Made by a program: the position numbers and the translations under genes. From Aminobacter aganoensis (GTDB taxonomy: Bacteria; Pseudomonadota; Alphaproteobacteria; Rhizobiales; Rhizobiaceae): a stretch of 58,928 bases of DNA. Positions 32,513-58,845 of this stretch are shown piece by piece; the first letter of the stretch is position 1, and the number at the start of each line of letters is the position of its first letter. The notes below the pieces were generated by a model, which saw only the letters and a program-made list of their open reading frames with translations, was not told where the DNA came from and searched no databases. The stretch covers positions 1 to 58,928 of the forward strand of contig NZ_JACHOU010000025.1 of assembly GCF_014206975.1 (NCBI RefSeq). Reading direction: 5' to 3'.

Positions 32513-34282
32513 ATGCAGGTACTTGTTTTTAACGCCGGCAGTTCCAGCCTCAAGTTCGGCATCTTCAGCGTGACGACTGAAACACACGAAGTGTTCAAGG
32601 GTTCTTATGAGCGCTTTCGGGCCGGAGGATGCGAATGCCGTTTTCGGCATGGAGAAACCGACGAGCGGGGTGCGGTCGAATTCGATAGTCCCAGCGAAGC
32701 GCTGAAAGGGGTTCCGGCCGCGCTGAAGCGTTTCGGGCTCGACGCAATCGACGCTGTCGGGCACAGGATCGTCCATGGCGGCGCAAGGTTTACCTCGCCG
32801 ACACTGTTAGACGACGAGACAGTCGAGGCCATCGAAGCCCTGACACCGCTGGCTCCTTTGCACAACCCGGCGAACTTGGAAGCAGTCAGGCTCTGCCGCG
32901 GCCTATGGCCGGACATAAGCCAAGTGGCCGTGTTCGACACGGCCTTCCACCTCGGCAACCCAGCCTTCGCAAACACCTATGCGGTGCCGGCAAGGTGGCG
33001 GGATGCCGGTCTGCGCCGCTACGGGTTTCATGGTACCTCTCACAAATATGTGGCCGAGAGGGCGGCCCAAGAGATCGGCCGGCCGTTTTCCGACCTCCAA
33101 CTGGTGAGCATTCATCTCGGCAACGGCGCCAGCATCTGCGCCGTCAACCGCGGGCACAGCATGGACAGTTCGATGGGCATGACGCCGCTCGAGGGGCTGG
33201 TGATGGGTACCCGCTCCGGTGACGTGGACCCAGGCGCGTTTGGCTTTCTGTCGCGCGAACTTCAGCTTTCGGTGCAGGAGATCGAGGATGCGCTCTATTA
33301 CGAGAGCGGGCTGAAGGGGCTGGCAGGCTCGTCCGACATGCGCGACATTGAAGACAGGGCGGCTAAGGGCGACCCCGAGGCCCAACTCGCGATCGAGATC
33401 TACGCATACCGCGCCAAAAAGTATGTCGGGGCTTATGCTGCAGCGATGGGAGGACTGGACGCGATCGTCTTCACCGGCGGCATCGGCGAGAACTCTCCCT
33501 CCATGCGCCGGCGCATCTGCGACGGGCTGGACTTCATGGGTTTGCAGCTTGACCACGACCGCAACATGGCCGTGAACCTGTCAGACCGCGCGGCGCCGCA
33601 GATCCAGGCTTACGGTTCGCGTGTCCGCGTCTTCGTGACTGAGACCGCTGAGCAGCTCATGATCGCCCGCGAGACGGCGGCGGCGCTCGCTGCCGGAAAG
33701 TCCGGTGACGGGCTACGCCTGCCCATCGCGGTCTCGGCCAGGCACGTCCACCTCGCGCGCGAAGCGGTCGATGCCCTGTTCGGCAAGGGCTACGTACTCG
33801 ACCAGGCGACGCCCTTGCGGCAGCCCGGCCACTGGGCCGCAAAAGAACGGGTCACGCTCGTCGGTCCTAAGGGCAGGCTCGAACGTATCGCGATCCTCGG
33901 ACCGCTGCGCCAACGCACGCAGATCGAAGTTTCCCGCACCGACAGCTTCGCGCTCGGTATCGACGTGCCGGTGCGGGACAGCGGCAGGCTTGAAGCTACG
34001 CCGCAGGTCACGATCGAGGGGCCTGCCGGAAGCTTCACCACCGACGGCCTCATCATCGCGGCAAGGCACGTCCATACCAATCCCGCCGATGCTGCTCGAC
34101 TGGGGATCGAGGACGGCGAATATGTCGACGTGCGCGTCAACGACGAAGATCGCACGCTGACCTTCGGCCGGACTCTGGTACGGGTGGGCAAGGACACCTT
34201 CACGGAAGTGCACATCGACACCGATGAGGCCAACGCTGCAGGGATCGAAGTGGCTGCAGCGGGCGAACTGGTACAGGTTTGA
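32513..34282 (+). CDS. Acetate kinase fused to a PduL-type phosphotransacylase
   Basis: A 589-residue two-domain protein. Residues 1 to about 395 are an acetate kinase: FNAGSSSLKFG, GHRIVHGG, YGFHGTSHKYV, IHLGNGAS, MGTRSGDVDPG and FTGGIGENSP. Residues about 405-589 are a PduL-like phosphate acyltransferase with the metal-binding histidines in VSARHVHL and IIAARHVHTNPADA and the core RIAILGPLRQRTQIEVS. Kinase turns acetyl-phosphate plus ADP into acetate plus ATP; PduL turns acetyl-phosphate plus CoA into acetyl-CoA. The convergent neighbour is a phosphoketolase, which makes acetyl-phosphate, so both fates of that product sit in one chain. Confidence 0.93.
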   Translation: MQVLVFNAGSSSLKFGIFSVTTETHEVFKGSYERFRAGGCECRFRHGETDERGAVEFDSPSEALKGVPAALKRFGLDAIDAVGHRIVHGGARFTSPTLLDDETVEAIEALTPLAPLHNPANLEAVRLCRGLWPDISQVAVFDTAFHLGNPAFANTYAVPARWRDAGLRRYGFHGTSHKYVAERAAQEIGRPFSDLQLVSIHLGNGASICAVNRGHSMDSSMGMTPLEGLVMGTRSGDVDPGAFGFLSRELQLSVQEIEDALYYESGLKGLAGSSDMRDIEDRAAKGDPEAQLAIEIYAYRAKKYVGAYAAAMGGLDAIVFTGGIGENSPSMRRRICDGLDFMGLQLDHDRNMAVNLSDRAAPQIQAYGSRVRVFVTETAEQLMIARETAAALAAGKSGDGLRLPIAVSARHVHLAREAVDALFGKGYVLDQATPLRQPGHWAAKERVTLVGPKGRLERIAILGPLRQRTQIEVSRTDSFALGIDVPVRDSGRLEATPQVTIEGPAGSFTTDGLIIAARHVHTNPADAARLGIEDGEYVDVRVNDEDRTLTFGRTLVRVGKDTFTEVHIDTDEANAAGIEVAAAGELVQV

Positions 34283-34311: not shown

Positions 34312-36699
34312 TCAATCTCCCGCATAGGCGGCAGTCTTATAGGGCCAGCTCCATTCCCGGATCTCAGGCATGTCCTCACCGTATTGCCGGACATACGACG
34401 CGTGCTCGGCCAGCGCTTGCTCGCACCGCTCGACCACTCGTTCGCCGCCCATGCCAGGATTCGGCAGCCGCCTGACCGCGGCCATGACCAGATGGAAGCG
34501 GTCGAGCTCGTTCATGACTGCCATGTCGAAGGGGGTAGTGGTCGTGCCTTCTTCCTGGAACCCGTGGACGTGGAAATTGTCGTGGTTGGTCCGCTTATAG
34601 GTCAGGCGGTGAATGAGGTACGGATAGCCGTGATAGGCGAAGATCACGGGCCTGTCCTTTGTGAAGAGAGCGTCGAATTCATCGTCGGTGAACCCGTGCG
34701 GGTGGGTGGTGTGAGATTGCAGCGTCATCAGGTCGACGACATTGACAATCCTGATCCGGAGATCGGGTAGCTCGCGGCGCAGCAGATCGACGGCGGCGAG
34801 AATTTCCAGTGTCGGCACGTCGCCGCAGCAGGCCATTACCACATCGGGCTCCTCGCCAGCCGGGCATGTGGAAGCCCATTCCCAAATCCCGGCGCCCGCC
34901 TCGCAATGGCGTTCCGCCTGCTCGGCGGTGAGCCATTGCGGCTGAGGCTGCTTGCCGGCCGTGATCACGTTGATCCGGTTCCAGGTTCTCAGGCAGTGGT
35001 CGGTAACCCAGAGCAGGGTGTTGGCATCCGGAGGAAAATAGAGGCGGACGGTGTCGGCCTTCTTGTTGGCGACGAAGTCGGCGAAGCCCGGATCCTGGTG
35101 GCTGAAGCCATTGTGGTCCTGGCGCCAGACATGCGAGGTCAGAAGATAGTTAAGCGACGCGATCGGCTTGCGCCACGGCAACTCGGCGGAGACCTTGAGC
35201 CATTTGGCATGCTGATTGACCATAGAATCCACGATGTGGATGAAGGCCTCGTAACAGGAGAATAGGCCATGCCGCCCGGTCAGCAGGTAACCCTCCAGCC
35301 ACCCTTGGCAAAGATGCTCCGACAGAACCTCCATCACCCGGCCCTCGCGCGCGAGGTGCACGTCGTAGGGCTCGATCGTCTCCATCCAGACCCGATCCGT
35401 GACCTCGAAGACTGCATCGAGCCTGTTCGAGGCGGTCTCGTCCGGTCCCATCAGACGGAAATTCCTCGCCTCCGCATTGAGGCTTATCACCTCGCGCAGA
35501 TAGACGCCCATGAAGCGGGTCGTCTCGACGATCGTCTCCCCGGGCCGACGGACATCGACGGCGAGGTTCTTCCACTCCGGCAGGATGAGGTCCTTCTTCA
35601 ACACTCCACCATTGGCATGCGGCAGCGCTCCCATGCGCTTGTCACCATCGGGAGCAAGTGTAGCGAGTTCCGGCAGGAGGCGACCGTCGCCATTGAACAG
35701 TTCCTCCGGCCGATAACTGCGCAGCCAGTCCTCGAGGATCTGGCGGTGGTCGACATCGCCTCGGGCGTTGGACACCGGAACCTGGTGCGACCGCCAGAAG
35801 TCCTCGACCTTCTTGCCGTCGACCTCCTTAGGCCCAGTCCATCCCTTCGGGCTGCGCAGGACGATCATGGGCCAGCGCGGCCGCTCGCCTGACCAGCCTT
35901 CTGTCCGCGCCCCGTCTTGAATCGCGCGGATGCAATCCATGCACTCATCAAGCGCCTCGGCCATCGCCCTATGCATGGGTGCCGGATCACGGCCCTCGAC
36001 GAAGATGGGATCATAGCCATAGCCGATGAACAGGCTGCGGAGCTCGTCATCGTCCATGCGTGCCAGCAGCGTGGGATTGGCGATCTTGTAGCCGTTGAGG
36101 TGGAGGATCGGCAGGACCGCGCCGTCCACCTTTGGGTTGAGGAACTTGTTGGAGTGCCAGGCTGCCGCCAGCGGTCCCGTCTCCGCCTCCCCGTCGCCGA
36201 CGACACAGGCCACGATGAGGTCGGGGTTGTCGAAAGCGGCGCCGAAGGCATGGACAAGCGCGTAGCCGAGTTCGCCGCCTTCGTGGATCGAACCCGGCGT
36301 CTCTGGGGCGACGTGGCTGGGTATACCGCCAGGAAACGAGAACTGGCGGAACAGTTTTCGCAATCCGGCCTCGTCCTGCGTGATCTCCGGATAAATCTCG
36401 CTGTAGGAGCCCTCAAGATAGATGTTCGCCACCATCGCCGGTCCGCCGTGGCCGGGCCCGCAGATGTAGAGGACGTCCATATCCCGCTCCTTGATGACGC
36501 GGTTCAGGTGCACATAGACGAAATTCAAGCCAGGTGTCGTTCCCCAGTGGCCGAGAAGGCGTGGCTTAACGTGTTCGGCCGCAAGAGGCTCTCGAAGTAG
36601 GGGATTGTCCATCAGGTAGATTTGGCCGACAGATACGTAGTTGGCGGCTCGCCAGTAGCGATCAATTAGACCGAGTTGGGTGTCACTGACGTCTGCCAT
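34312..36699 (-). CDS. xfp: Xylulose 5-phosphate/fructose 6-phosphate phosphoketolase
   Basis: A 795-residue thiamine-diphosphate enzyme that splits xylulose 5-phosphate (often also fructose 6-phosphate) into acetyl-phosphate and an aldose phosphate. Typical features are [38 protein letters not shown], the diphosphate-binding [26 protein letters not shown] and the C-terminal [26 protein letters not shown] in two parts. MADVSDTQ at 36699 is preferred; an in-frame ATG at 36723 adds eight residues. It faces the acetate kinase-PduL gene and is divergent from a cytochrome c gene, with an FNR-type box between. Confidence 0.93.
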
Positions 36700-36888
36700 C
36701 CTGAAGTCACTCCGCGCTCGCATTCCGACCAGTGATTAGGCCAACGCTTCCCGACCCGAAGGTAAGCTTTGTCCCACGTTCATCTTGCTGGGTACGTCCG
36801 TCGACCTCCTATACGCTGCGTATCGATCACTTGGACAACAGCTCAAGGACGTGCGACGTCTGAGATATAGCTGAGATTTCTCCGAGCG

Positions 36889-48163: not shown

Positions 48164-48592
48164 TCAGGCTCCGATGACGTGGCGGATGAGGAAGACAGTG
48201 ATGATGGCCGTCGTCATAAAGATGCCGGTGGCGACGAAGGAGCGGGTCGACAGTCGCGAGAGTCCGCAGACACCGTGACCCGACGTGCAGCCATTGCCCC
48301 AGACCGACCCGAAGCCGACGAGGAGGCCCGCTCCGAGCATTAGCGGAATGTTGGATGAAACCGTCTGGCTCACCTCGACATCGCCGACCGCGATCATGGC
48401 AATCGGCGCCGTAACGAGGCCGATAACGAAGCCGAAACGCGACAGGAACGCGCTGTCGCGATAGGGCGGCAGCAGGCGTCCTGCTATCCCGGAAATGCCC
48501 GCGATGCGGCCTTCCCACAGCATCAGCAGCACAGCCGACAGGCCGATCATCATGCCGCCGATGAGCGAGGCGAGTGGGGTAAATCCGGTCAT
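48164..48592 (-). CDS. pmpA: YeeE/YedE sulfur transport membrane protein PmpA
   Basis: A 142-residue membrane protein with four helices and the motif VWGNGCTSGHGVCGLSRLSTRS, the other YeeE/YedE half. The cysteines are the expected sulfur-transfer residues. The start overlaps the bigR stop by four bases. In Xylella and Agrobacterium the same gene order belongs to the BigR-controlled sulfide-detoxification operon. Confidence 0.9.
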   Translation of the reverse strand: MTGFTPLASLIGGMMIGLSAVLLMLWEGRIAGISGIAGRLLPPYRDSAFLSRFGFVIGLVTAPIAMIAVGDVEVSQTVSSNIPLMLGAGLLVGFGSVWGNGCTSGHGVCGLSRLSTRSFVATGIFMTTAIITVFLIRHVIGA

Positions 48593-48939
48593 GGATTGGA
48601 TCCTTCGCGCGGCTTGGCGCAGAACATGACGTGCATCATGGAGACGAATTCAGCGACCCGGCCGTCTTCGAGCCGGTAGAACATATGCTTCGCTTCCTTG
48701 CGGCCGACTATGAAGCCAGCCTCGCGCAGTTCAGCGATCTGCTGCGACAGGCCCGGCTGGCGGATGCCGAGCGTGTCTTCGAGATCGCGTACCGAGCGCT
48801 CGCCATCAACGAGTGCGCAGACGATCATCAGCCGCGAGGGATGGGCGAGCTTCTTCAGGAAGTCCGCCGCCTCGCCGGCATTTTCGACCATCTCGGCCGT
48901 CTCTTGCGACAGTTCGCGTGTCATGGCGGTCAGTCCCAT
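48589..48939 (-). CDS. bigR: BigR/SqrR persulfide-sensing ArsR-family repressor
   Basis: A 116-residue winged-helix repressor. Cys41 (in LMIVCALVDGE) and Cys107 (in HVMFCAKP) match the two cysteines of BigR/SqrR that form a di- or tetrasulfide with reactive sulfur and release DNA. The helix-turn-helix reads DTLGIRQPGLSQQIAELREAG. GGAGGGTGCGGC precedes the ATG at 48939, which overlaps the blh end by ten bases. It should repress the whole operon. Confidence 0.92.
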   Translation of the reverse strand: MGLTAMTRELSQETAEMVENAGEAADFLKKLAHPSRLMIVCALVDGERSVRDLEDTLGIRQPGLSQQIAELREAGFIVGRKEAKHMFYRLEDGRVAEFVSMMHVMFCAKPREGSNP

Positions 48940-50237
48940 GCCGCACCCTCCAGCACGTCGAGCGGGAATTTGAGATAGCGCTTGCCATTCGCCTCAGGCG
49001 CGGGCAGGCGACCGCCATTCATGTTCACCTGCAGAGCGTGCAAAATCAGCTTGGGCATGGGCAAGGTCGCATCGCGCCTCTCGCGAACTGCAACAAACTC
49101 GTCTTTCGTCCGGCATTTCGACATGTGCGTGTTCTCTGCCTTCTCCTCCGCGACGGTCGATTCCCATTGCGGTGCGCGACCTTCTGGCTGGTAATCGTGA
49201 CCGACAAAAATGCGGGTTGCGTCCGGCAGGGCCAAGATCTGCTGGATCGAATCCCAAAGGCGCGCCGCGCTCCCGCCGGGAAAGTCGGCCCGCGCGGTCC
49301 CTGAGTCCGGCATGAACAGCGTGTCGTGGACGAAGGCCGCATCGCCGATCACATACGTGATGGAGGCGAGTGTATGGCCTGGCGAAAACAACACCTTCGC
49401 ATCGATCGTCCCGACCTTGAACCGCTCGCCCTCGGCAAAACGCTTGTCCCACTGCGAGCCGTCTGCCGGGAAGTCAGGCCAGTTGTAAAAACCCTTCCAG
49501 AGCTTCTGCACTTCGACGACTTTCTCGCCAATGGCGGTCGGCGCGCCGGTCTTGTCCTTGAGATACCGCGCGGCGGAGAAATGGTCGGCATGGGGATGAG
49601 TGTCGAGAATCCACTCGACCGTCAGCCCCTTGCTCTCGATGTAGCCGAGAATGCGGTCGGCATTGATCGTCGCCGTCGCGCCCGACTTTTCGTCGAAATC
49701 AAGCACCGGATCGATGATGGCGCACTGCTTGGTGACCGGATCGGAGACGACATATTGCACCGAGAAGGTGCGGTTGTCGAAGAACGCCTTCACGTCGGGC
49801 ACAGTGCTTTCGCGACGGGCTTGGTTGGCATCGAGCCATTTGACGGCGCCTGACAGATCCAGGCCGAGGCGCTGGCCGAGCGGCAAGATGTCGCTGCGGG
49901 CCATACGCCCTTCGAGCACTTCGCCGATCGCGTGGAGTGTCGCCGAGCGTGTGCCGGTCTTGCAATGGGCGAGCACCGGCCCATCCGCCCTTTTCAGCGC
50001 CAGCTGGAAATTGATGACATGGTCCTTGTTGATCTGGCCAGGCACGACCGGGATATGCGTGTAGCCGAGCCCCGCCGCCTCGGCGGTCCGGCGATTCGCG
50101 GACGCGCTCGGCTGGCCCGTTTCCTCGTCGTCCGGGCGGTTGTTAATGATAGCCGCAATGCCATTCGCCCTGGCCACCCGGATGTCGGCCGCGGTGAGTT
50201 GCGGGGCAATGAAGAGCTTGTCGGAAATCTGTTTCAT
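48930..50237 (-). CDS. blh: Bifunctional sulfurtransferase/persulfide dioxygenase Blh
   Basis: A 435-residue two-domain enzyme. Residues about 1-110 form a DUF442 phosphatase-like sulfurtransferase domain with the Cys loop in VLAHCKTGTRSA. Residues about 150-400 form an ETHE1-type metallo-beta-lactamase persulfide dioxygenase with the metal-binding THPHADHFSAARYL, SPGHT and GHDY. It oxidises glutathione persulfide to sulfite. MKQISDKL at 50237 is preferred because GGAGAG lies just before it; an earlier ATG at 50252 would overlap that signal. It is the first gene of the BigR operon. Confidence 0.93.
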   Translation of the reverse strand: MKQISDKLFIAPQLTAADIRVARANGIAAIINNRPDDEETGQPSASANRRTAEAAGLGYTHIPVVPGQINKDHVINFQLALKRADGPVLAHCKTGTRSATLHAIGEVLEGRMARSDILPLGQRLGLDLSGAVKWLDANQARRESTVPDVKAFFDNRTFSVQYVVSDPVTKQCAIIDPVLDFDEKSGATATINADRILGYIESKGLTVEWILDTHPHADHFSAARYLKDKTGAPTAIGEKVVEVQKLWKGFYNWPDFPADGSQWDKRFAEGERFKVGTIDAKVLFSPGHTLASITYVIGDAAFVHDTLFMPDSGTARADFPGGSAARLWDSIQQILALPDATRIFVGHDYQPEGRAPQWESTVAEEKAENTHMSKCRTKDEFVAVRERRDATLPMPKLILHALQVNMNGGRLPAPEANGKRYLKFPLDVLEGAAWD

Positions 50238-50295
50238 GTATCTCTCCTGCATACTCGGCCGCTACGGCCAATTTACTTTCGCCCATGTAAAAACG

Positions 50296-50824: not shown

Positions 50825-51340
50825 CTATTCGATGGGAACCCATGCCGTTCTGTGTCTATGCGGCTCCGATTGGGGGGAATCGGCGTCTGCTTTTGCCGCC
50901 CAGGCGGACAGTGGCCGCGGCCGAGCTGCGTCGCCCTCCGGCGGCAGCGGTCGGGTCAGGATGAAGATCGCCGGAAAAGCCAGCACGAGACATTGGAGGC
51001 CCACCACATAAAACGGCGCACCAATGAGGAGGGAGGCGCGCGGTACTGCGAAAATCACGATCATCGCGTTGCGCTTGGTCGGGCCGGAAATCGCTCTGTG
51101 CCTGCTCCATTGTTCAATCGGCGGTCCGAGGCGGGGATGCTCGTTCAACCAACGATGCAGGCGAGGCGATCCGCGGGCGAAACAGCAAGCCGATAGCAGC
51201 AGGAACGGCGTCGATGGCAGCAGCGGCACAAGGATGCCGAGGAGTCCCAAACAAACGCAAAGCAGCCCGAGTCCCGCCCACATAATCCGGACGGCGCTTC
51301 GCGCCAGCGGCGCAGCATTTTGTTCAGGCCGCCGGCGCAA
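50825..51340 (-). CDS. DUF454 (YbaN) family membrane protein
   Basis: A 171-residue inner-membrane protein with about three to four helices. It has the family pattern GLLCVCLGLLGILVPLLPSTPFLLLSACCFARGSPRLHRWL, given here in two linked parts, followed by HPRLGPPIEQW and KRNAMIV. The function is unknown; relatives often lie near respiratory and NO genes. Its start overlaps the end of nsrR by seventeen bases, so the two are probably co-transcribed. Confidence 0.85.
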   Translation of the reverse strand: MRRRPEQNAAPLARSAVRIMWAGLGLLCVCLGLLGILVPLLPSTPFLLLSACCFARGSPRLHRWLNEHPRLGPPIEQWSRHRAISGPTKRNAMIVIFAVPRASLLIGAPFYVVGLQCLVLAFPAIFILTRPLPPEGDAARPRPLSAWAAKADADSPQSEPHRHRTAWVPIE

Positions 51341-51752
51341 TGCCGAATTCTTCCGAGCTAAGGATCAGGTCTGCGAGCGTGTAGCGATCTAGCGAGGTGA
51401 CAAACGCCTCCAGCGCCTCGCGCAGCGCGCGTCGCAGGCGGCAGCAATTGGTGATGGTACAGCGGTTTCCGGTAGTGAAGCACTCGACCAGGGCAAAGTC
51501 CGGTTCGGTCCGCCGGATGACGTCCCCGACCAGTATCTCGCCTGCGGCCATACCCAACATGAGCCCCCCCGAACGGCCGCGCACCGCTTTGAGATAACCG
51601 GCGCGGGTGAGAGCGTTCACCACCTTCATCAGGTGCGCCCGTGAAATGCCGTAGAAGCGCGCCGTTTCGTCGATCGTGATCAGACGGCTGTCTTTCGAGC
51701 CGGCATACATGAGCACGCGCAAGGCATAATCGGAAAAGTTGGTCAATCGCAT
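51324..51752 (-). CDS. nsrR: NsrR-type Rrf2 family nitric oxide-sensing repressor
   Basis: A 142-residue Rrf2-family winged-helix protein beginning MRLTNFSDYALRVLMYAG. The iron-sulfur ligands are in the VECFTTGNRCTITNCC segment (Cys91, Cys98, Cys103 or 104), as in NsrR. NO destroys the cluster and releases DNA. An NsrR-like box at 51892-51914 lies between this gene and the divergent DUF2249 operon, which supports the identification and suggests that both directions are controlled. Confidence 0.88.
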   Translation of the reverse strand: MRLTNFSDYALRVLMYAGSKDSRLITIDETARFYGISRAHLMKVVNALTRAGYLKAVRGRSGGLMLGMAAGEILVGDVIRRTEPDFALVECFTTGNRCTITNCCRLRRALREALEAFVTSLDRYTLADLILSSEEFGIAPAA

Positions 51753-51891
51753 AGAATTTTCCCGTGTTACGACGGCCAGGCCGCTGGCGGTCGAGTGCGG
51801 TTAGATGCCTGTGACGAGCATGCGATTCAAGCAGTCCGTCTACAGACTTCTCAGCGCTCATTGGCTCCGCCACCTGATCGAGCAGCGACAT

Positions 51892-51914
51892 AAGATACAT
51901 TGACAATATATCTT
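51892..51914. promoter_or_regulatory. NsrR-type operator
   Basis: AAGATACATT and AATATATCTT face each other around a three-base centre, giving a 23-base site very close to the NsrR consensus AAGATGYATTT-N-AAATRCATCTT. It lies about 130 bases upstream of the DUF2249 operon and 140 from nsrR. Confidence 0.85.
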
Positions 51915-52020
51915 TCACAAGCAAGAGTGTCGACAACGGTCAGGGTGACAGGCGGGCCGTTTCCCCACTCGGCATTCCGGGGCGGTCGCGATCGCGGTGT
52001 GCTGTTCGGAAGACGCGACC

Positions 52021-52296
52021 ATGGAGCCAGACCCCATGTCGAACACCCCTCAAACATCCGACGCAAACACGGTGGACGTGCGCATGCTCGTGCCTGCGCA
52101 ACGCCACCAGAAGATCTTCCAGCTGGTAGACGAGTTGCAGCCGGGAAAAGCCTTCGTCCTCGTCAATGACCACGATCCCAAGCCGCTCTACTACCAACTC
52201 GAGGCTGAATATCCCGGCCAGTTCTCCTGGATCTATCTGGAGCGCGGGCCGGACGTCTGGCGCGTCGAGATCGGCAAGCAGAAGCAGGCGGCCTGA
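52021..52296 (+). CDS. DUF2249 domain protein
   Basis: A 91-residue protein made of one DUF2249 domain (VDVRMLVPAQRHQKIFQLVDEL, VLVNDHDPKPLYYQLEAEYPG, FSWIYLERGPDVWRVEI). The domain is related to TusA-like folds and is common in NsrR regulons; it has no settled reaction. GGAAG precedes the ATG at 52021, and MSNTPQ at 52036 is an alternative. It is the first gene after the NsrR box. Confidence 0.85.
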   Translation: MEPDPMSNTPQTSDANTVDVRMLVPAQRHQKIFQLVDELQPGKAFVLVNDHDPKPLYYQLEAEYPGQFSWIYLERGPDVWRVEIGKQKQAA

Positions 52297-52361
52297 CGCG
52301 ACGGTGCGTCGCGAGAGGGAGGCGGCGCGACGCACCAACACCAGGCGAAGGAGAATCCCCG

Positions 52362-53717
52362 ATGGTGGGCGCTTCCCTGTCGAGATGGTCGATGTCCTAT
52401 TTTGCGGTCGCGCTCCTCGCGCTGATTGTCGCGGAAGGATTGATGACCGCAGGATTCGGGTTTCCCGTAGCGCCGATCCATGCGCCGGAGACGCTGGCGC
52501 TGGTGCATCTCATTGCGATCGGGTGGCTGAGTCTGCTGATGCTCGGTGCGCTATTCCAGTTCGTGCCGGTACTCGTCGCGCGGCCTCTGTACAGCGATTG
52601 GCTGCCGCTGCCCACACTGGCGCTACTGCTGGCTGGGCTGACGGCGCTGCTTGCAGGTTTCCTCCAACTGGCCGGGGTCATTTCCGTTCCCCATAGCTGT
52701 TTCCCAGCCGCCAGCATCCTTTTGGGCGCGGGCTTTTCGCTCGCCCTTTGGAACCTGGGCCGCACACTTTGGGCGGCGCGCCCGCTGCCGGTACCTGCAC
52801 GTTTCGTCACCGTCGGACTGGCCGGCATCGCCGCCACCGCGCTGCTCGGCATCATCTTCGCACTCACGCTTGGCGGCGTCATTTCCAACCCAGCACTCCT
52901 CGCCATCGCCTCGCAAGGCGTGCCGGTGCATGCGATTGCAGGACTTGGCGGCTGGCTCACTTTTACCGCCATGGGCGTCAGCTATCGCCTGCTGGCCATG
53001 TTCATGCTCGCGCCTGAACTCGACGGCACGAGCACGCGAGCGGCATTTTGTCTCGGAACTGCCGCGCTCACGTTGCTGATCCTGGGAGGGGTCGGCGCTA
53101 TCTGGATGGACGGCAATCTCGATTTCGTCCTGATAGCAGCCGCTACGCTCGGACTCGCCTGTGCGGCGCTTTACTGGAAAGACATGATTCACCTTTACCG
53201 GGCGCGCAAGCGGCGGGTAATCGAACTCAATAGCCGCATGGCCGGCTTTGCGCTCGCGTCGCTCGCGTCGGCTGTGGTGCTGACACTTATCCTTGCATTG
53301 CTGGGTGTCCTGCCACGCCATGGCGGAGCCATAGCGTTCATCACTGCTTTCGGATGGCTGAGCGGTCTCGCACTTGCAATGCTTTATAAGATCATCGCGT
53401 TCATGACCTGGCTCGAATGCTACGGTCCGGTTCTTGGCAAGAGACCGACGCCGCGCGTCCAGGATCTGGTCACGGAGCGCGTCGCCTTTCCGTGGTTCCT
53501 TGTCTACTTTATAGCCGTTTGGTCCGGTACGGTGGCGCTCCTGTGCGACCAGGCGACACTCTTCCGCGTCTGCGCGGGCGCGATGTTGCTCGCAACAGTC
53601 GGCCTTTGCATTCAGTTCGTGCGTACGCGCTTTCTCGACAACGTCCCTGTCCCGGCGCGCTTTCCCGAGGGCGTGCGCAGGCCGCGCCTGCTTCTTTCCC
53701 TTACGCAACCCCGATAG
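52362..53717 (+). CDS. Polytopic membrane protein, COX1/NnrS-like, NsrR-regulated
   Basis: A 451-residue protein with about twelve hydrophobic segments. Histidines lie near or within helices: ALVHLIAIGWLSLLMLGALFQFVPV and GVPVHAIAGLGGWLTFTAMGVSYRLLAMF, shown here in parts, recall heme-binding helices of heme-copper oxidase subunit I and NnrS. I do not recognise a named family. It lies 66 bases after the first DUF2249 gene in an operon with an NsrR box, so a role in NO defence or respiration is inferred. AAGGAGAATCCCCG precedes the ATG. Confidence 0.75.
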   Translation: MVGASLSRWSMSYFAVALLALIVAEGLMTAGFGFPVAPIHAPETLALVHLIAIGWLSLLMLGALFQFVPVLVARPLYSDWLPLPTLALLLAGLTALLAGFLQLAGVISVPHSCFPAASILLGAGFSLALWNLGRTLWAARPLPVPARFVTVGLAGIAATALLGIIFALTLGGVISNPALLAIASQGVPVHAIAGLGGWLTFTAMGVSYRLLAMFMLAPELDGTSTRAAFCLGTAALTLLILGGVGAIWMDGNLDFVLIAAATLGLACAALYWKDMIHLYRARKRRVIELNSRMAGFALASLASAVVLTLILALLGVLPRHGGAIAFITAFGWLSGLALAMLYKIIAFMTWLECYGPVLGKRPTPRVQDLVTERVAFPWFLVYFIAVWSGTVALLCDQATLFRVCAGAMLLATVGLCIQFVRTRFLDNVPVPARFPEGVRRPRLLLSLTQPR

Positions 53718-53732
53718 CCGAGGAGAAATCTG

Positions 53733-54266
53733 ATGACCGTCAAATACGTGGATCTCGACGTTCGGCCCGCCCTGCGCGCTGGAGAAGAACCCTTCGAACA
53801 GATCACGGCCGCGGTGGCGACTCTGCCGGCGGGACAGGGCCTTCGCCTGTTTGCGACCTTTAAGCCGGTGCCTCTGCTGCATGTGCTTGGATCGAAAGGC
53901 TTCTCCCATGAGCTGAAAGAGCTGGAAGACGGCGAATGGGAAGTGCTCTTTACGCCGGAAGCCACTACCGAAGCGGCGACGGAGGCCGATGTCGTTGCGA
54001 CGCCAGCAGAGGGCGTCTGGCCCGATTCGGCGCTCACGCTCGACAACCGCGACCTCGATCCGCCCGAACCGATGGTGCGCATTCTTGCTGCGCTCGAGAA
54101 GATGCACGAGGGCGAGGTCCTGTCGGCGCTGCTCTGCCGCGAGCCCGTATTCCTTATGCCGGAACTCGCCAAGCGAGGCCATCAATGGCAGGGCGCATTC
54201 GAGGGCGACGGCGCCACTTACAGAATCCTCGTCCGCGTCGGCTCCAGTCGGGAGGCGGCGGCGTGA
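53733..54266 (+). CDS. Tandem DUF2249 domain protein
   Basis: A 177-residue protein with two DUF2249 domains. The first (about 4-75) reads YVDLDVRPALRAGEEPFEQI, RLFATFKPVPLLHVLGSKGF and GEWEVLF; the second (about 98-172) reads LDNRDLDPPEPMVRIL, LLCREPVFLMPELAKRG and ATYRILV. It starts sixteen bases after the membrane protein gene. The two domains may bind a shared partner or metal. The exact role is unknown. Confidence 0.85.
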   Translation: MTVKYVDLDVRPALRAGEEPFEQITAAVATLPAGQGLRLFATFKPVPLLHVLGSKGFSHELKELEDGEWEVLFTPEATTEAATEADVVATPAEGVWPDSALTLDNRDLDPPEPMVRILAALEKMHEGEVLSALLCREPVFLMPELAKRGHQWQGAFEGDGATYRILVRVGSSREAAA

Positions 54267-54598
54267 CAGTCGAGGCCAACGACGCGCTTGCCGAACAGGT
54301 GCGTGAAGCGCTTCGGCTCGTGATCGATCCCGAGCTCGGATACAACATCGTCGACCTCGGCCTGATCTATTTCGTTGGCATCGCGGATGGCGGCGTTGCG
54401 AACATCGTGATGACGACCACGACCAAAGGATGTCCAGCGACGAACTATCTCAAGGAAGGCGCGCGAGACGGTGCCTGGAGCGTGTCCGGGATCGAATTTG
54501 TCGATGTCGCATTGACCTACGAGCCGCCATGGACGCCTGAAATGATGACCGACGAGGCGAAGGAGCATCTCGGAATCAGGGGCGGAGGCGGATGGTGA
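54263..54598 (+). CDS. MIP18/DUF59 family metal-sulfur cluster assembly factor
   Basis: A 111-residue protein of the DUF59 (MIP18/PaaD/SufT) family that helps in iron-sulfur cluster delivery. It shows LRLVIDPELGYNIVDLGLIY, VNIVMTTTTKGCPA-like (IVMTTTTKGCPATNYL) with the conserved cysteine, and VDVALTYEPPWTPEMM. The start is GTG at 54263, overlapping the tandem DUF2249 stop by four bases, with GGGAGGCGG before it. Its presence suggests that a product of this operon carries a cluster or that clusters are repaired after NO damage. Confidence 0.88.
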   Translation: MTVEANDALAEQVREALRLVIDPELGYNIVDLGLIYFVGIADGGVANIVMTTTTKGCPATNYLKEGARDGAWSVSGIEFVDVALTYEPPWTPEMMTDEAKEHLGIRGGGGW

Positions 54599-54825
54599 CG
54601 GAGCGCGCTGCGGATATGGACTTACCTTCGACCAAGCAAGCAACCGCCGCTGAGCTCGCCGCAATCCTGCTCGACAGCCTCGGAGAACTGGCGAAGACCG
54701 GGAATGTCGAATCCGCATGTCGCTTGGCAGGGCGCGCCTGCGCGAGGCTGCGCAATGCGGAGCCCCAGATGGCGCGCCGTTTCGACGTGTTCCTGCATCG
54801 TCAGACCAGGCATCTTGAATGGTAG
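54592..54825 (+). CDS. Small helical hypothetical protein
   Basis: A 77-residue protein rich in alanine, arginine and leucine, probably all alpha-helical (ELAAILLDSLGELAKTGNVE, CRLAGRACARLRN). I do not recognise it. It begins seven bases inside the DUF59 gene and ends 18 bases before the next gene, so it is part of the NsrR-linked operon. Confidence 0.6.
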   Translation: MVTERAADMDLPSTKQATAAELAAILLDSLGELAKTGNVESACRLAGRACARLRNAEPQMARRFDVFLHRQTRHLEW

Positions 54826-54843
54826 CCGCGGGGAGTGGAGCAT

Positions 54844-55134
54844 ATGACAAGCATCGAATTCGGCGATGGCGAGGTACTGGTCGACGCGGCCGTGATCGCG
54901 AAGGGACTGAAGCTGAAGGCGGAAGCCGTTCAGGAGATGATGCGCGAAGGTTGCATCACCAGTCTGTGCGAGCGGGGAACAGGCGAGGATGCAGGCTGTT
55001 TCCGTCTGACGTTCTTTACCGACAACCGCCGTTTCAGGCTCGTGGTGAATGAGGCCGGAAGGATCATCCAGCGGCTGGGGGTCGATTTCGGGGATCGTCC
55101 GATGCCCGCATCCGCCCGTATTCCTGGGAGGTGA
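54844..55134 (+). CDS. DUF6522 family protein
   Basis: A 96-residue protein with IEFGDGEVLVDAAVIAKGL, a short helical MREGCITSLCERGTGEDAG segment with three cysteines, and LTFFTDNRRFRLVVNEAGRI, a pattern I recall as DUF6522. The function is unknown; members lie near denitrification genes. ATG at 54844 follows GGGGAGTGGAG. It is in line with the preceding NsrR-linked genes. Confidence 0.7.
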   Translation: MTSIEFGDGEVLVDAAVIAKGLKLKAEAVQEMMREGCITSLCERGTGEDAGCFRLTFFTDNRRFRLVVNEAGRIIQRLGVDFGDRPMPASARIPGR

Positions 55135-55210
55135 TGCGGGACGAACCGCAAAATACCCAATGCCGTCGATTAGACAGCCAGCCGTCCAACAAAGCGAGAA
55201 AGCAGCGACC

Positions 55211-55360
55211 ATGTCTAAAGATAGAAATGGTGACGAGCGAACTCACGCTCCGGGCGATCAAGCCGGAGACGATAATTCCAACAGCACCCTGTTGCCCATG
55301 CTGATCGCCGGTCTCGTGCTTATCGTCGTCGGTGCGATCGTTGTCATGAGCTTTGTGTAG
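55211..55360 (+). CDS. Small single-pass membrane protein
   Basis: A 49-residue protein: a hydrophilic N-terminus (KDRNGDERTHAPGDQ) and one membrane helix (LLPMLIAGLVLIVVGAIVVM). I do not recognise the family. It lies 76 bases after DUF6522 on the same strand and is convergent with narK. The ATG at 55211 is the natural start. Confidence 0.55.
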   Translation: MSKDRNGDERTHAPGDQAGDDNSNSTLLPMLIAGLVLIVVGAIVVMSFV

Positions 55361-57011: not shown

Positions 57012-57314
57012 TCAGGAAGAATGCCTCTCGCACGTCGTTGCCGCCAGCCGCCAGGCCACCATGGCGGCGAGGCATGCTGTCCCCGGGTCTTCATGGTCGC
57101 GTACAATTCTGGTGAGCTGCGCCCACGCTTCTTCATCGGCAAAGCGGCTGAAATCGGCGACCGCCGCTCGCGCGAAGCCGCTCGGGGAATCTCCGGCGCG
57201 CGCAGCCGCCATTCTCACCTCTTCGGCAAGATCAGGGTCGGCGGTTTCGATCCACCGCTGGAGGCCGGCCGCCGAACGACGCGCCGCGCCAAGCATGTCG
57301 CCCAGCGTTGGCAT
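57012..57314 (-). CDS. Small hypothetical protein of the nar segment
   Basis: A 100-residue, alanine-rich, probably helical protein beginning MPTLGDMLGAARRSAAGL. It resembles HEAT-repeat-like small proteins (DPDLAEEVRMAAARAG, AWAQLTRIVRDHEDPGTACL). The ATG overlaps the ppiC stop by one base (TGATG), giving the start. I know no function; its place in the nar cluster suggests a maturation or accessory role. Confidence 0.65.
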   Translation of the reverse strand: MPTLGDMLGAARRSAAGLQRWIETADPDLAEEVRMAAARAGDSPSGFARAAVADFSRFADEEAWAQLTRIVRDHEDPGTACLAAMVAWRLAATTCERHSS

Positions 57315-58237
57315 CAGGCGCCTCCTATGGCGGCCGGATCGATCTGCACGCCTTCTATCTCCGCCGATCGCGCCAGCTTCGCCGTGTAATGCGACGCCGC
57401 GACAGCCCAGGCGCGCGCCTCCAGCATGTCGACGATCTTGTCCTTGACCACGTCGAAGGGAAGCGTTCGCCCATCGATCTTGCGCTGCAGCCTGAGCACA
57501 TGCCAGCCAAAGCGCGAGCGGACCGGCTCGCGGCCCGTGGTTCCCTCGGGAAGCGCCTCCAGCGCCGTCTGGACGGCGTCGACCAGTTCCCCCCGCCTTA
57601 TCTGACCGAGCGAACCGTTCTGATGCGCCGACGGGCACTTGGAGAACTCGCGCGCCGCCGAGGCGAACATTTGTGGATCGTCTCCCAGTTCCGCCACAAT
57701 GGCTGAGGCCTGCGCCTCGGCCGAGGCCCACGCGCCATCGTCATCGCCATCCGGCTCGATAAGGATGTGGGAAGCTTCAAAGAGATCAGGCGTGCGGAAA
57801 CGATTGATACGGTTCTGGTAGTAGCGCCGGCATTCTTCTTCCCCGGCCGCCGCCGGTTCGAGCTGCCGCTCCAGCAGGACACGGATAATCGCATCCTCCT
57901 CTATCTCGCCGCGTCCGGCCTCATCCTCTTGCGAGTCCGGCTCGATGCCGAGATGCCGAGCCTCCTGAAGCAGGAGTTCGCGGATGGCCAGCGCCCGCGC
58001 CGCCTCTTTCCAGGCGGTCACCCCGTCCGGGGCGGGATGATGCTGGATTTCCAGCGCGATCGCCTCGGGTTCAATCTCCACGCCATTGACAATGACGGCG
58101 CCGAAACTCGGCGGCGCGGGCGCCAGCCGTGGATCGTGGCTCGATGAACCGCAGCCGCCGCTTTCACAGGCGCTGGGCATTGCCGCCGCTGGCCGCGCCG
58201 CGGTTCCAACATTGTCGATAAGGGTATGTCTGGTCAT
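57314..58237 (-). CDS. Parvulin-type peptidyl-prolyl isomerase of the nar operon
   Basis: A 307-residue PpiC-like protein. The N-terminal part is a SurA-like helical region (ALAIRELLLQEARHLGIEP), then the parvulin domain (about 150-250) with FEASHILIEPDG, FSKCPSAHQNGSLGQIRRGEL and SRFGWHVLRLQRKIDGR. No signal peptide is present, so it acts in the cytoplasm, as do the PpiC proteins encoded next to narI in many nitrate reductase operons. The ATG overlaps the narI stop by four bases. Confidence 0.88.
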   Translation of the reverse strand: MTRHTLIDNVGTAARPAAAMPSACESGGCGSSSHDPRLAPAPPSFGAVIVNGVEIEPEAIALEIQHHPAPDGVTAWKEAARALAIRELLLQEARHLGIEPDSQEDEAGRGEIEEDAIIRVLLERQLEPAAAGEEECRRYYQNRINRFRTPDLFEASHILIEPDGDDDGAWASAEAQASAIVAELGDDPQMFASAAREFSKCPSAHQNGSLGQIRRGELVDAVQTALEALPEGTTGREPVRSRFGWHVLRLQRKIDGRTLPFDVVKDKIVDMLEARAWAVAASHYTAKLARSAEIEGVQIDPAAIGGA

Positions 58238-58845
58238 TGCGCGCTCTCGCTATGGGATCGAGGAACGGTATCGCCGCCGAAGCTCGGGGCGAGCCCTGCC
58301 GGGCCGAGCGTCGGCGTCGTGCTGACGCCGGTCTTCGAATGTGACCGTACGATCTGGTAGCCGGGCCGGAAAAGATACCAGATTGGCGCGCTCCAGATAT
58401 GGACGAGGCGCGTAAACGGCGTAATCAGGAAAAGCGTCAGGCCGAGCACGATATGCAGCTTGTAGACAAGCGCTGTGTCGAGGATCAGCGCCGAGGCGCC
58501 CGGATCAAACCGGGTAAGGCCGCTCGCCCAGCCCATGAACAGCACCATCTCGTGCCCGTCGAGCGCGTTCACCGTCCAGATGGTGGTGGACAGGCCGAGG
58601 AAGAGTTGCAGCCACAGCAACACCAGCACCATGATGTCGCCCTTGGAGGAACTACGCCGGATGCGCGGGTCAAAGAGACGGCGGTGGAGAAGAAGGCTGC
58701 ACCCGATGAAGGCGGCGATGCCGGCGATGCCCCCGACGGCAAGTGCGGTGACCTGCTTGAAGCCATGGCTGACGCCGACGAAATTAAAAACGGCCGCCGG
58801 TGTAAGCAGCCCCACAAGATGACCGACGAACAGTGTGACTTTCCA
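58234..58845 (-). pseudogene. narI: narI, respiratory nitrate reductase gamma subunit, 5'-truncated
   Basis: The open frame covers about the last 200 residues of NarI, the cytochrome b that feeds quinol electrons to NarGH. The four heme-ligand histidines remain (VGHLVGLLTP, VGVSHGFKQ, YKLHIVLGL, RLVHIWSAP). The N-terminal membrane helix and part of the second are missing: the match starts around KVTLFVGHL, and TAA at 58846-58848 stands directly upstream. Without its first helix and start codon it is unlikely to work. Confidence 0.85.

What the first reader, a model, noticed from the sequence alone, without database searches (positions are those of the whole stretch)
51324..55360. NsrR-controlled seven-gene set of unknown function
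An NsrR gene and a near-consensus NsrR box precede a DUF2249 protein, a 12-helix COX1/NnrS-like membrane protein, a tandem DUF2249 protein, a DUF59 cluster-assembly factor, a small helical protein, a DUF6522 protein and a single-pass membrane protein. No NO reductase, nitrite reductase or flavohemoglobin is present. Overlaps show tight coupling of several genes. The set may be an unrecognised membrane NO-detoxifying or NO-sensing complex that needs cluster delivery.
Basis: partly seen in the sequence, partly recalled or inferred. Interest (0 to 1): 0.75.

Follow-up and report, generated by a model that had tools for sequence, protein, structure and literature searches.

The report
Nitric-oxide-controlled membrane heme-protein operon
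A group of bacteria that respire nitrate carry a conserved little set of genes, with control sites of nitric-oxide regulators and built around an unstudied membrane protein shaped like respiratory oxidases, which probably helps the cell survive or handle nitric oxide.

Summary
The genes are real and at the stated coordinates. An nsrR-type gene and an NsrR-like box (51892-51914) precede DUF2249, a 12-helix membrane protein (MP), a double DUF2249, DUF59, a small helical protein (HEL), DUF6522 and a one-helix protein. No second box within 3 mismatches exists in the genome.

Across 85 MP loci the core is MP, double DUF2249 and DUF59 (80), often with the first DUF2249 (54) and HEL (47); DUF6522 (10) and the one-helix protein (5) are optional, so "seven-gene set" is too wide. 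The box recurs in 41 of 83 upstream regions; 29 of the other 42 carry an FNR/NnrR-type site.

MP's predicted fold is that of heme-copper oxidases and NO reductases, but only two histidines are invariant, which suggests one heme and no B metal. In 297 genomes of the order MP goes with NirK (10 of 12 with MP, 49 of 285 without). The core lies in the Sinorhizobium meliloti pSymA denitrification island. The window's genome has NirK, NorCB and NnrS on other contigs, so it does not stand in for missing NO enzymes.

Best reading: an NO-responsive accessory operon of denitrification for NO tolerance; its biochemistry is unproven.

The parts
51324..51752 (-). nsrR-type Rrf2 repressor gene, divergent from the operon; cysteines C91, C98, C104 conserved
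   Evidence: Rrf2 6e-31; best NCBIfam NsrR 136 bits, cut-off 182; best PDB match NsrR 5n07 E 4.5e-21, best IscR 8e-7; three Cys at least 95% conserved in 28 aligned sequences
51892..51914 (.). NsrR-like operator, containing a candidate -35 hexamer TTGACA at 51900-51905
   Evidence: no + strand promoter-like site found there; one minus-strand site (51933-51905, toward nsrR) is no more than chance
51997..52296 (+). DUF2249 protein (D1); ATG at 52036 is a likelier start than the GTG at 51997
   Evidence: PF10006 1e-30; start by inspection of the sequence
52362..53717 (+). MP: 12-helix membrane protein of predicted heme-copper-oxidase fold, invariant H49 and H190
53733..54266 (+). D2: double DUF2249 (second half TusA-like, CPxP cysteine replaced by proline)
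   Evidence: PF10006 2.3e-36, TusA 2.8e-9; PPEPM in 84 of 84
54263..54598 (+). DUF59 / iron-sulfur assembly factor (PaaD/SufT-like), C57 invariant
   Evidence: PF01883 9.3e-14; Cys in 81 of 81 aligned
54592..54825 (+). HEL: 77-aa three-helix protein without a named family; C43 and H69 invariant in 31 aligned sequences
   Evidence: no Pfam or NCBIfam hit
54835..55134 (+). DUF6522 protein, optional member
   Evidence: PF20132 2.5e-33; same strand within 4 kb in 10 of 85 loci
55211..55360 (+). 49-aa single-pass membrane protein, rare member
   Evidence: 5 of 85 loci; no family over cut-off

Best explanation
It is a nitric-oxide-responsive accessory operon of denitrification. SHOWN by sequence: a conserved core (membrane protein MP, double DUF2249, DUF59, often a leading DUF2249 and a 77-aa helical protein), an operator of NsrR type, and linkage to nitrite-reductase genes. 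INFERRED: without NO, cluster-loaded NsrR sits on the operator over the -35 element and blocks transcription; NO destroys the cluster and the operon is switched on. MP, with the 12-helix oxidase fold but only two invariant histidines (helices 2 and 6), holds one heme and no copper or non-heme iron B site. MP and its soluble DUF2249 partners then buffer, transfer or slowly turn over NO at the membrane and/or protect respiratory metal centres, while DUF59 supplies or repairs iron-sulfur clusters in proteins outside the operon. This is an NnrS-like role carried by a different family.
For: Core synteny: D2 in 83, DUF59 in 81, both in 80 of 85 loci picked by MP alone. Operator (18 or more of 22 positions) in 41 of 83 upstream regions; 0 of 4150 Markov resamplings and 0 of 83 coding controls reach that score; 29 of the 42 others have TTG-N8-CAA (NnrR/FNR type) against 1 of 83 coding controls. 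Operator single in the genome. Fold: pLDDT 93, pTM 0.92; the first 43 Foldseek rows, 13 of them at E 0.001 or better, are all oxidases or NO reductases, best cbb3 3mk7 (TM 0.64) and NOR 4xyd (TM 0.59). H49 and H190 in 85 of 85 and kept in three distant relatives, each with a DUF2249 hit beside it. MP goes with NirK: 10 of 12 against 49 of 285 genomes (Fisher 2e-6; without the own genome 9 of 11, 1e-5); in 6 of these 12 MP lies within 7 kb of nirK (coordinates). S. meliloti pSymA: hemN - pirin - DUF2249 - MP - DUF2249 - cluster factor - IS element - nnrS - nirK, nor genes beyond hemN (core also in strain 1021).
Against: No heme or NO binding was shown; whether H49 and H190 face each other was not measured. 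Of 40 cassette genomes (taken from the 80 scan loci) 19 have no NirK over cut-off, so the tie is not strict; NirS was not searched. 13 of 83 loci have neither kind of site, 6 loci with an nsrR gene have no box, and the nearest relative (L017) has no box. Profile comparisons with NnrS and with NorB/cbb3 are insignificant. The DUF59 client is unknown: MP and D2 have no invariant cysteine. Related genomes are not independent, which the Fisher tests ignore.
Confidence: 0.5

Rival explanations
1. Assembly or maturation module: MP and its partners insert or exchange heme, copper or iron for denitrification enzymes (NirK, Nor, Nos, Nar), and have no NO chemistry of their own.
For: Tracks NirK; neighbour clusters include HemN-like, NosR-like, NirV-like and heavy-metal P-type ATPase families, and hemN, nnrS and nirK in S. 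meliloti; a dedicated DUF59 factor.
Against: 19 of 40 cassette genomes have no NirK over cut-off and 24 of 50 no NorB-like hit at E 1e-20 (quinol-type hits came as weak as 1e-22, so some may be missed), so no single client among these fits; the NsrR-type operator points to NO itself.
Confidence: 0.25
2. Signalling module: MP senses NO or nitrate at the membrane and DUF2249 proteins pass the signal on, as proposed for DrpA/DrpB of Thermus.
For: DrpA and DrpB are DUF2249 proteins that alter nitrate-reductase expression in T. thermophilus (PMC6282519, passages).
Against: No output domain found in the operon's proteins; an NsrR-type regulator is already there; the passages seen on Drp mention no 12-helix partner.
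Confidence: 0.13
3. A true NO-reducing or NO-oxidising enzyme complex with a single-heme membrane subunit, fed electrons by quinol.
For: Oxidase/NO-reductase fold and very high conservation around helix 10.
Against: Only two invariant histidines, so no HCO/NOR-type dinuclear site; no cytochrome c found in the operon; 26 of 50 cassette genomes, the own one included, already have a NorB-like gene.
Confidence: 0.1

Closest known systems
NnrS (PF05940)
   Same: Membrane protein of NO regulons and denitrification clusters (PMC1274295, passages); stands near the cassette in S. meliloti and in 20 of 85 loci
   Different: No sequence hit, profile comparison insignificant; the two NnrS genes of the own genome have no DUF2249 or DUF59 directly beside them
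Three-unit heme-copper-oxidase-homology (HCOH) proteins, Pei et al. 2014 (paper not held, content recalled; cited in PMC11218638)
   Same: 12 helices, two conserved histidines, oxidase fold, denitrification context
   Different: Could not check whether this very family is among those named there
NO reductase NorB / cbb3 oxidase CcoN (PF00115)
   Same: Fold of the predicted model
   Different: Lacks the other histidine ligands; no PF00115 hit
COG4309-norB operons predicted under NsrR or NnrR (PMC1274295, passages)
   Same: DUF2249 (recalled identity of COG4309) in NO regulons
   Different: The passages seen name no MP, DUF59 or helical protein, and report NsrR in alphaproteobacteria only for R. 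capsulatus E1F1
DrpAB of Thermus (PMC6282519, passages)
   Same: DUF2249 proteins next to a nar operon
   Different: DrpB also carries DUF1858; no 12-helix partner in the passages seen
Sphingopyxis granuli SGRAN_3394-3396 (PMC6472365 and PMC7713065, passages)
   Same: Operon divergent from nsrR, 100- to 200-fold induced by anaerobiosis or an NO donor; three genes, as MP-D2-DUF59 in Sphingobium locus L079
   Different: Identity with this cassette is a lead, not tested: the sequence was not held; the first gene is called TatC there

Membership tests
NsrR | Rrf2 domain with three cluster cysteines | tested here: met
NsrR | Score above the curated NsrR model cut-off | tested here: not met
   136 of 182 bits; still its best family, and the nearest PDB chain is NsrR
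NsrR | Palindromic operator of NsrR type upstream of target genes | tested here: met
   2 of 14 positions differ from the published consensus
NsrR | NO-sensitive DNA binding | not testable with these tools
   needs protein
NnrS (PF05940) | Match to the family profile | tested here: not met
   no hit at E 0.1; the two genomic NnrS lie on other contigs
Heme-copper oxidase / NO reductase catalytic subunit (PF00115) | 12-helix fold | tested here: met
   on a predicted model
Heme-copper oxidase / NO reductase catalytic subunit (PF00115) | Six histidine ligands for two hemes and a B metal (recalled) | tested here: not met
   only H49 and H190 invariant in 85 sequences
Heme-copper oxidase / NO reductase catalytic subunit (PF00115) | Match to PF00115 | tested here: not met
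   one search lists no hit on C25
HCOH (features recalled) | 12 helices and two conserved histidines | tested here: met
HCOH (features recalled) | Three repeated four-helix units | tested here: inconclusive
   only a repeated GWL at 54, 197 and 331 was seen
HCOH (features recalled) | Sequence membership in a published HCOH family | not testable with these tools
   paper not held
DUF2249 (PF10006) | Profile match above cut-off | tested here: met
   105.8 and 123.9 bits, cut-off 29.5
TusA sulfurtransferase | CPxP cysteine (motif recalled) | tested here: not met
   PPEP in 84 of 84
DUF59 / FeS_assembly_P | Profile match and the conserved cysteine | tested here: met

The most novel reading that the evidence does not exclude
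MP with its DUF2249 partners is a new kind of membrane NO-handling heme complex: an oxidase-fold protein without a B-metal site that binds NO on one heme and passes it, or electrons, on with the help of TusA-like proteins that lack the catalytic cysteine, as an NO buffer working between nitrite reductase and NO reductase.
Probability: 0.2. Interest if true: 0.8.

Novelty: new variant of a known kind. Interest (0 to 1): 0.55.

Why it matters
How denitrifiers keep NO low bears on N2O emission and on rhizobial symbiosis. A conserved operon inside the nir-nor region of the model species S. meliloti, annotated as hypothetical protein plus DUF2249 in the record read here, with control sites of two different kinds of NO-related regulator across its relatives, is a directly testable missing part. 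It would also give the unknown domain DUF2249, perhaps DUF6522, and an unnamed 77-aa family a pathway.

Tried and rejected
Rejected: (1) 'The cassette replaces a missing NO reductase': in the order sample NorB is present in 6 of 10 NirK+ MP+ genomes and 19 of 49 NirK+ MP- genomes, Fisher 0.30. (2) 'MP is an NnrS or a COX1 by sequence'. (3) 'D2 is a sulfurtransferase'. (4) A seven-gene conserved unit. (5) A fold relative for the 77-aa protein: no match at E 0.001 (model pLDDT 79).

Led nowhere: no solved-structure relative by sequence at E 1 for MP or DUF6522; the Bradyrhizobium NnrR-regulon paper named no recognisable cassette gene in the passages seen (PMC6710368); three further papers gave no gene tag for the S. 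meliloti operon in the passages seen (one reference there, de Bruijn 2006, on a conserved NO-induced S. meliloti operon, was seen as a title only and may be this one). No S. granuli genome could be identified: a sample of the family of L079's genome gave only two already known loci among 397 genomes. Coordinates of the MP model were not available, so the H49-H190 distance was not measured. NirS, flavohemoglobin and quinol-type NO reductases were not searched with models of their own.

For some searches, 40 of the 80 scan loci were chosen by me for spread of genus; one search adds 10 genomes.
Full report
What is there. Family scans give Rrf2, DUF2249, a 451-residue membrane protein without family (MP), a double DUF2249 whose second half also matches TusA, DUF59, a 77-residue protein without family (HEL), DUF6522 and a 49-residue one-helix protein (NCBIfam). 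Downstream on the other strand follow a NarK-type transporter (TIGR00886, 195 bits, cut-off 311.7) and genes that I read by eye as nar genes (NarI-like 58234-58815, a peptidyl-prolyl-isomerase-like protein 57314-58237); the contig ends with the window.

Conservation. They were chosen by MP alone. Counts, window included: double DUF2249 83, DUF59 81, both 80, leading DUF2249 54, HEL 47, NsrR within 5 kb 26, DUF6522 on the same strand 10 (14 on either strand), one-helix protein 5. Of the five loci without both D2 and DUF59, L029 and L074 lie on contigs under 4 kb; L043, L088 and L092 do not. All seven plus nsrR occur only in the window and L033. Hosts named span what I recall as alpha-, beta- and gammaproteobacteria (for example Mesorhizobium, Afipia, Bradyrhizobium, Devosia, Sphingobium, Candidimonas, Pandoraea, Rhodanobacter). 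The gene is rare in even samples: 8 of 289 genomes of the class at E 0.001, 4 of them strong; 12 full-length of 297 of the order; 2 of 397 in the family of L079's genome, both already known loci. On plasmids it was found in 114 of 72,556 records, 50 Sinorhizobium and 42 Rhizobium.

Control. A site AAGATRYATTGNCAATRYATCTT scoring at least 18 of 22 lies upstream of the lead gene in 41 of 83 loci with enough sequence; in 4150 first-order Markov resamplings of the same regions the best was 17, and 0 of 83 coding stretches reached 18. TTGACA lies inside 37 of the 41 boxes. Of the 42 loci without a box, 29 carry TTG-N8-CAA between -300 and -60 (coding control of the same length 1 of 83); 4 loci have both, 13 neither. 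An nsrR gene is present in the locus with 22 of the 41 boxes, absent with 19, and present without a box in 6 loci. The consensus was taken from the window, so the window's own match is circular; the other 40 are not. The nearest relative, L017, has no box but a TTG-N8-CAA site. In the own genome no second site lies within 3 mismatches, so this NsrR may serve this operon alone. A midpoint-rooted tree of MP, without support values shown, has two architectures: box with D1 and HEL, and FNR/NnrR site mostly without HEL; box and HEL go together (36, 5, 8, 34; Fisher 1.5e-10, not corrected for kinship). A clade nested in the box group (L050, L052, L037, L029, L043, L031) shows no box, no leading D1 and no HEL, although L029 is a short contig.

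The membrane protein. AlphaFold2 on 42 natural sequences gave pLDDT 93 and pTM 0.92 with twelve long helices. Foldseek's first 43 rows are all heme-copper oxidases or NO reductases with probability 1.00; 13 reach E 0.001, best 1.9e-6 with TM 0.64. H49 in helix 2 and H190 in helix 6 are the only histidines kept in 85 of 85. Three distant relatives keep both positions and have a DUF2249 hit beside MP. By analogy with helices 2, 6 and 10 of the oxidases (recalled) the pair could hold one heme; this is inference, since no coordinates could be measured. A local hhalign match puts H49 on the helix-10 HxH of NorB, but it is statistically insignificant, as is the match to NnrS.

Pathway. The own genome carries three NirK hits over cut-off, a NorC-NorB pair 91% and 87% identical to the one beside the cassette in S. 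meliloti, annotated there as cytochrome c and nitric-oxide reductase large subunit, two NnrS and a gene near nirK that I read by eye as the Crp/Fnr regulator NnrR. In the order sample MP goes with NirK (10 of 12 against 49 of 285) and more weakly with NorB (6 of 12 against 41 of 285, Fisher 0.005; without the own genome 5 of 11, 0.016). Against a strict tie: 19 of 40 other cassette genomes have no NirK over cut-off and 24 of 50 no NorB-like hit at E 1e-20; NirS was not searched, and many are metagenome assemblies. Neighbour clusters within 9.5 kb in the 85 loci include NnrS (20 loci), Crp/Fnr regulators (35), NosR-like (12), COX1 family (12), NirV-like (14), HemN-like (13); each was named from one representative. 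In S. meliloti ml45 pSymA the four core genes lie between hemN-pirin and, past an IS element, nnrS-nirK, with norCBQD beyond hemN; strain 1021 has the same four genes; HEL, DUF6522 and NsrR were not found in the two pSymA stretches.

Literature. Rodionov 2005 (PMC1274295, passages) predicted COG4309 with norB under NsrR or NnrR; that COG4309 is DUF2249 is recalled. DUF2249 is linked to nitrate respiration in Thermus (PMC6282519, passages) and Haloferax (PMC11218638, passages). In Sphingopyxis granuli the most NO-induced operon is a three-gene one divergent from nsrR, annotated as protein transport, first gene TatC (PMC6472365 and PMC7713065, passages); locus L079 (Sphingobium) has nsrR divergent from MP-D2-DUF59. 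The match in layout is suggestive and untested. Ten searches of the held library listed no paper that I could recognise as treating this operon as a unit; subscription papers are mostly not held.

Verdict. A real, conserved operon with NO-regulator sites, of the denitrification accessory class, with a two-histidine oxidase-fold membrane protein at its core. The NO-tolerance role is the best reading; the biochemistry is open.

Noticed in passing
window 32513-34279 (+) and 34315-36723 (-): One frame joins an acetate kinase domain and a phosphate propanoyltransferase (PTAC) domain, and lies next to a phosphoketolase gene on the other strand: a possible fused acetyl-phosphate unit.
   Followed up: no
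window 48164-50252 (-): A beta-lactamase-hydrolase-like phosphatase and metallo-hydrolase fusion, an ArsR-type regulator and a weak sulfur-transporter match: looks like a sulfide-detoxification set (BigR type, recalled) beside this region.
   Followed up: no
L117 12878-15027 (own genome, C9): A second Rrf2 gene similar to the window's NsrR (157.9 bits with the local profile) stands directly before a COX1-family gene, on the contig that carries a NirK and a NnrS.
   Followed up: partly
L116 2812-3261 (own genome, C5): A further DUF2249 protein (E 6e-32 with the D1 profile) lies about 4.3 kb from norB in the own genome.
   Followed up: no
L050, L052 against the window: The two of nine congeners that have MP carry one only about 60% identical, without box, leading D1 or HEL, while the nearest MP found (77%) is in another Rhizobiaceae assembly (L017): may reflect horizontal transfer.
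   Followed up: partly
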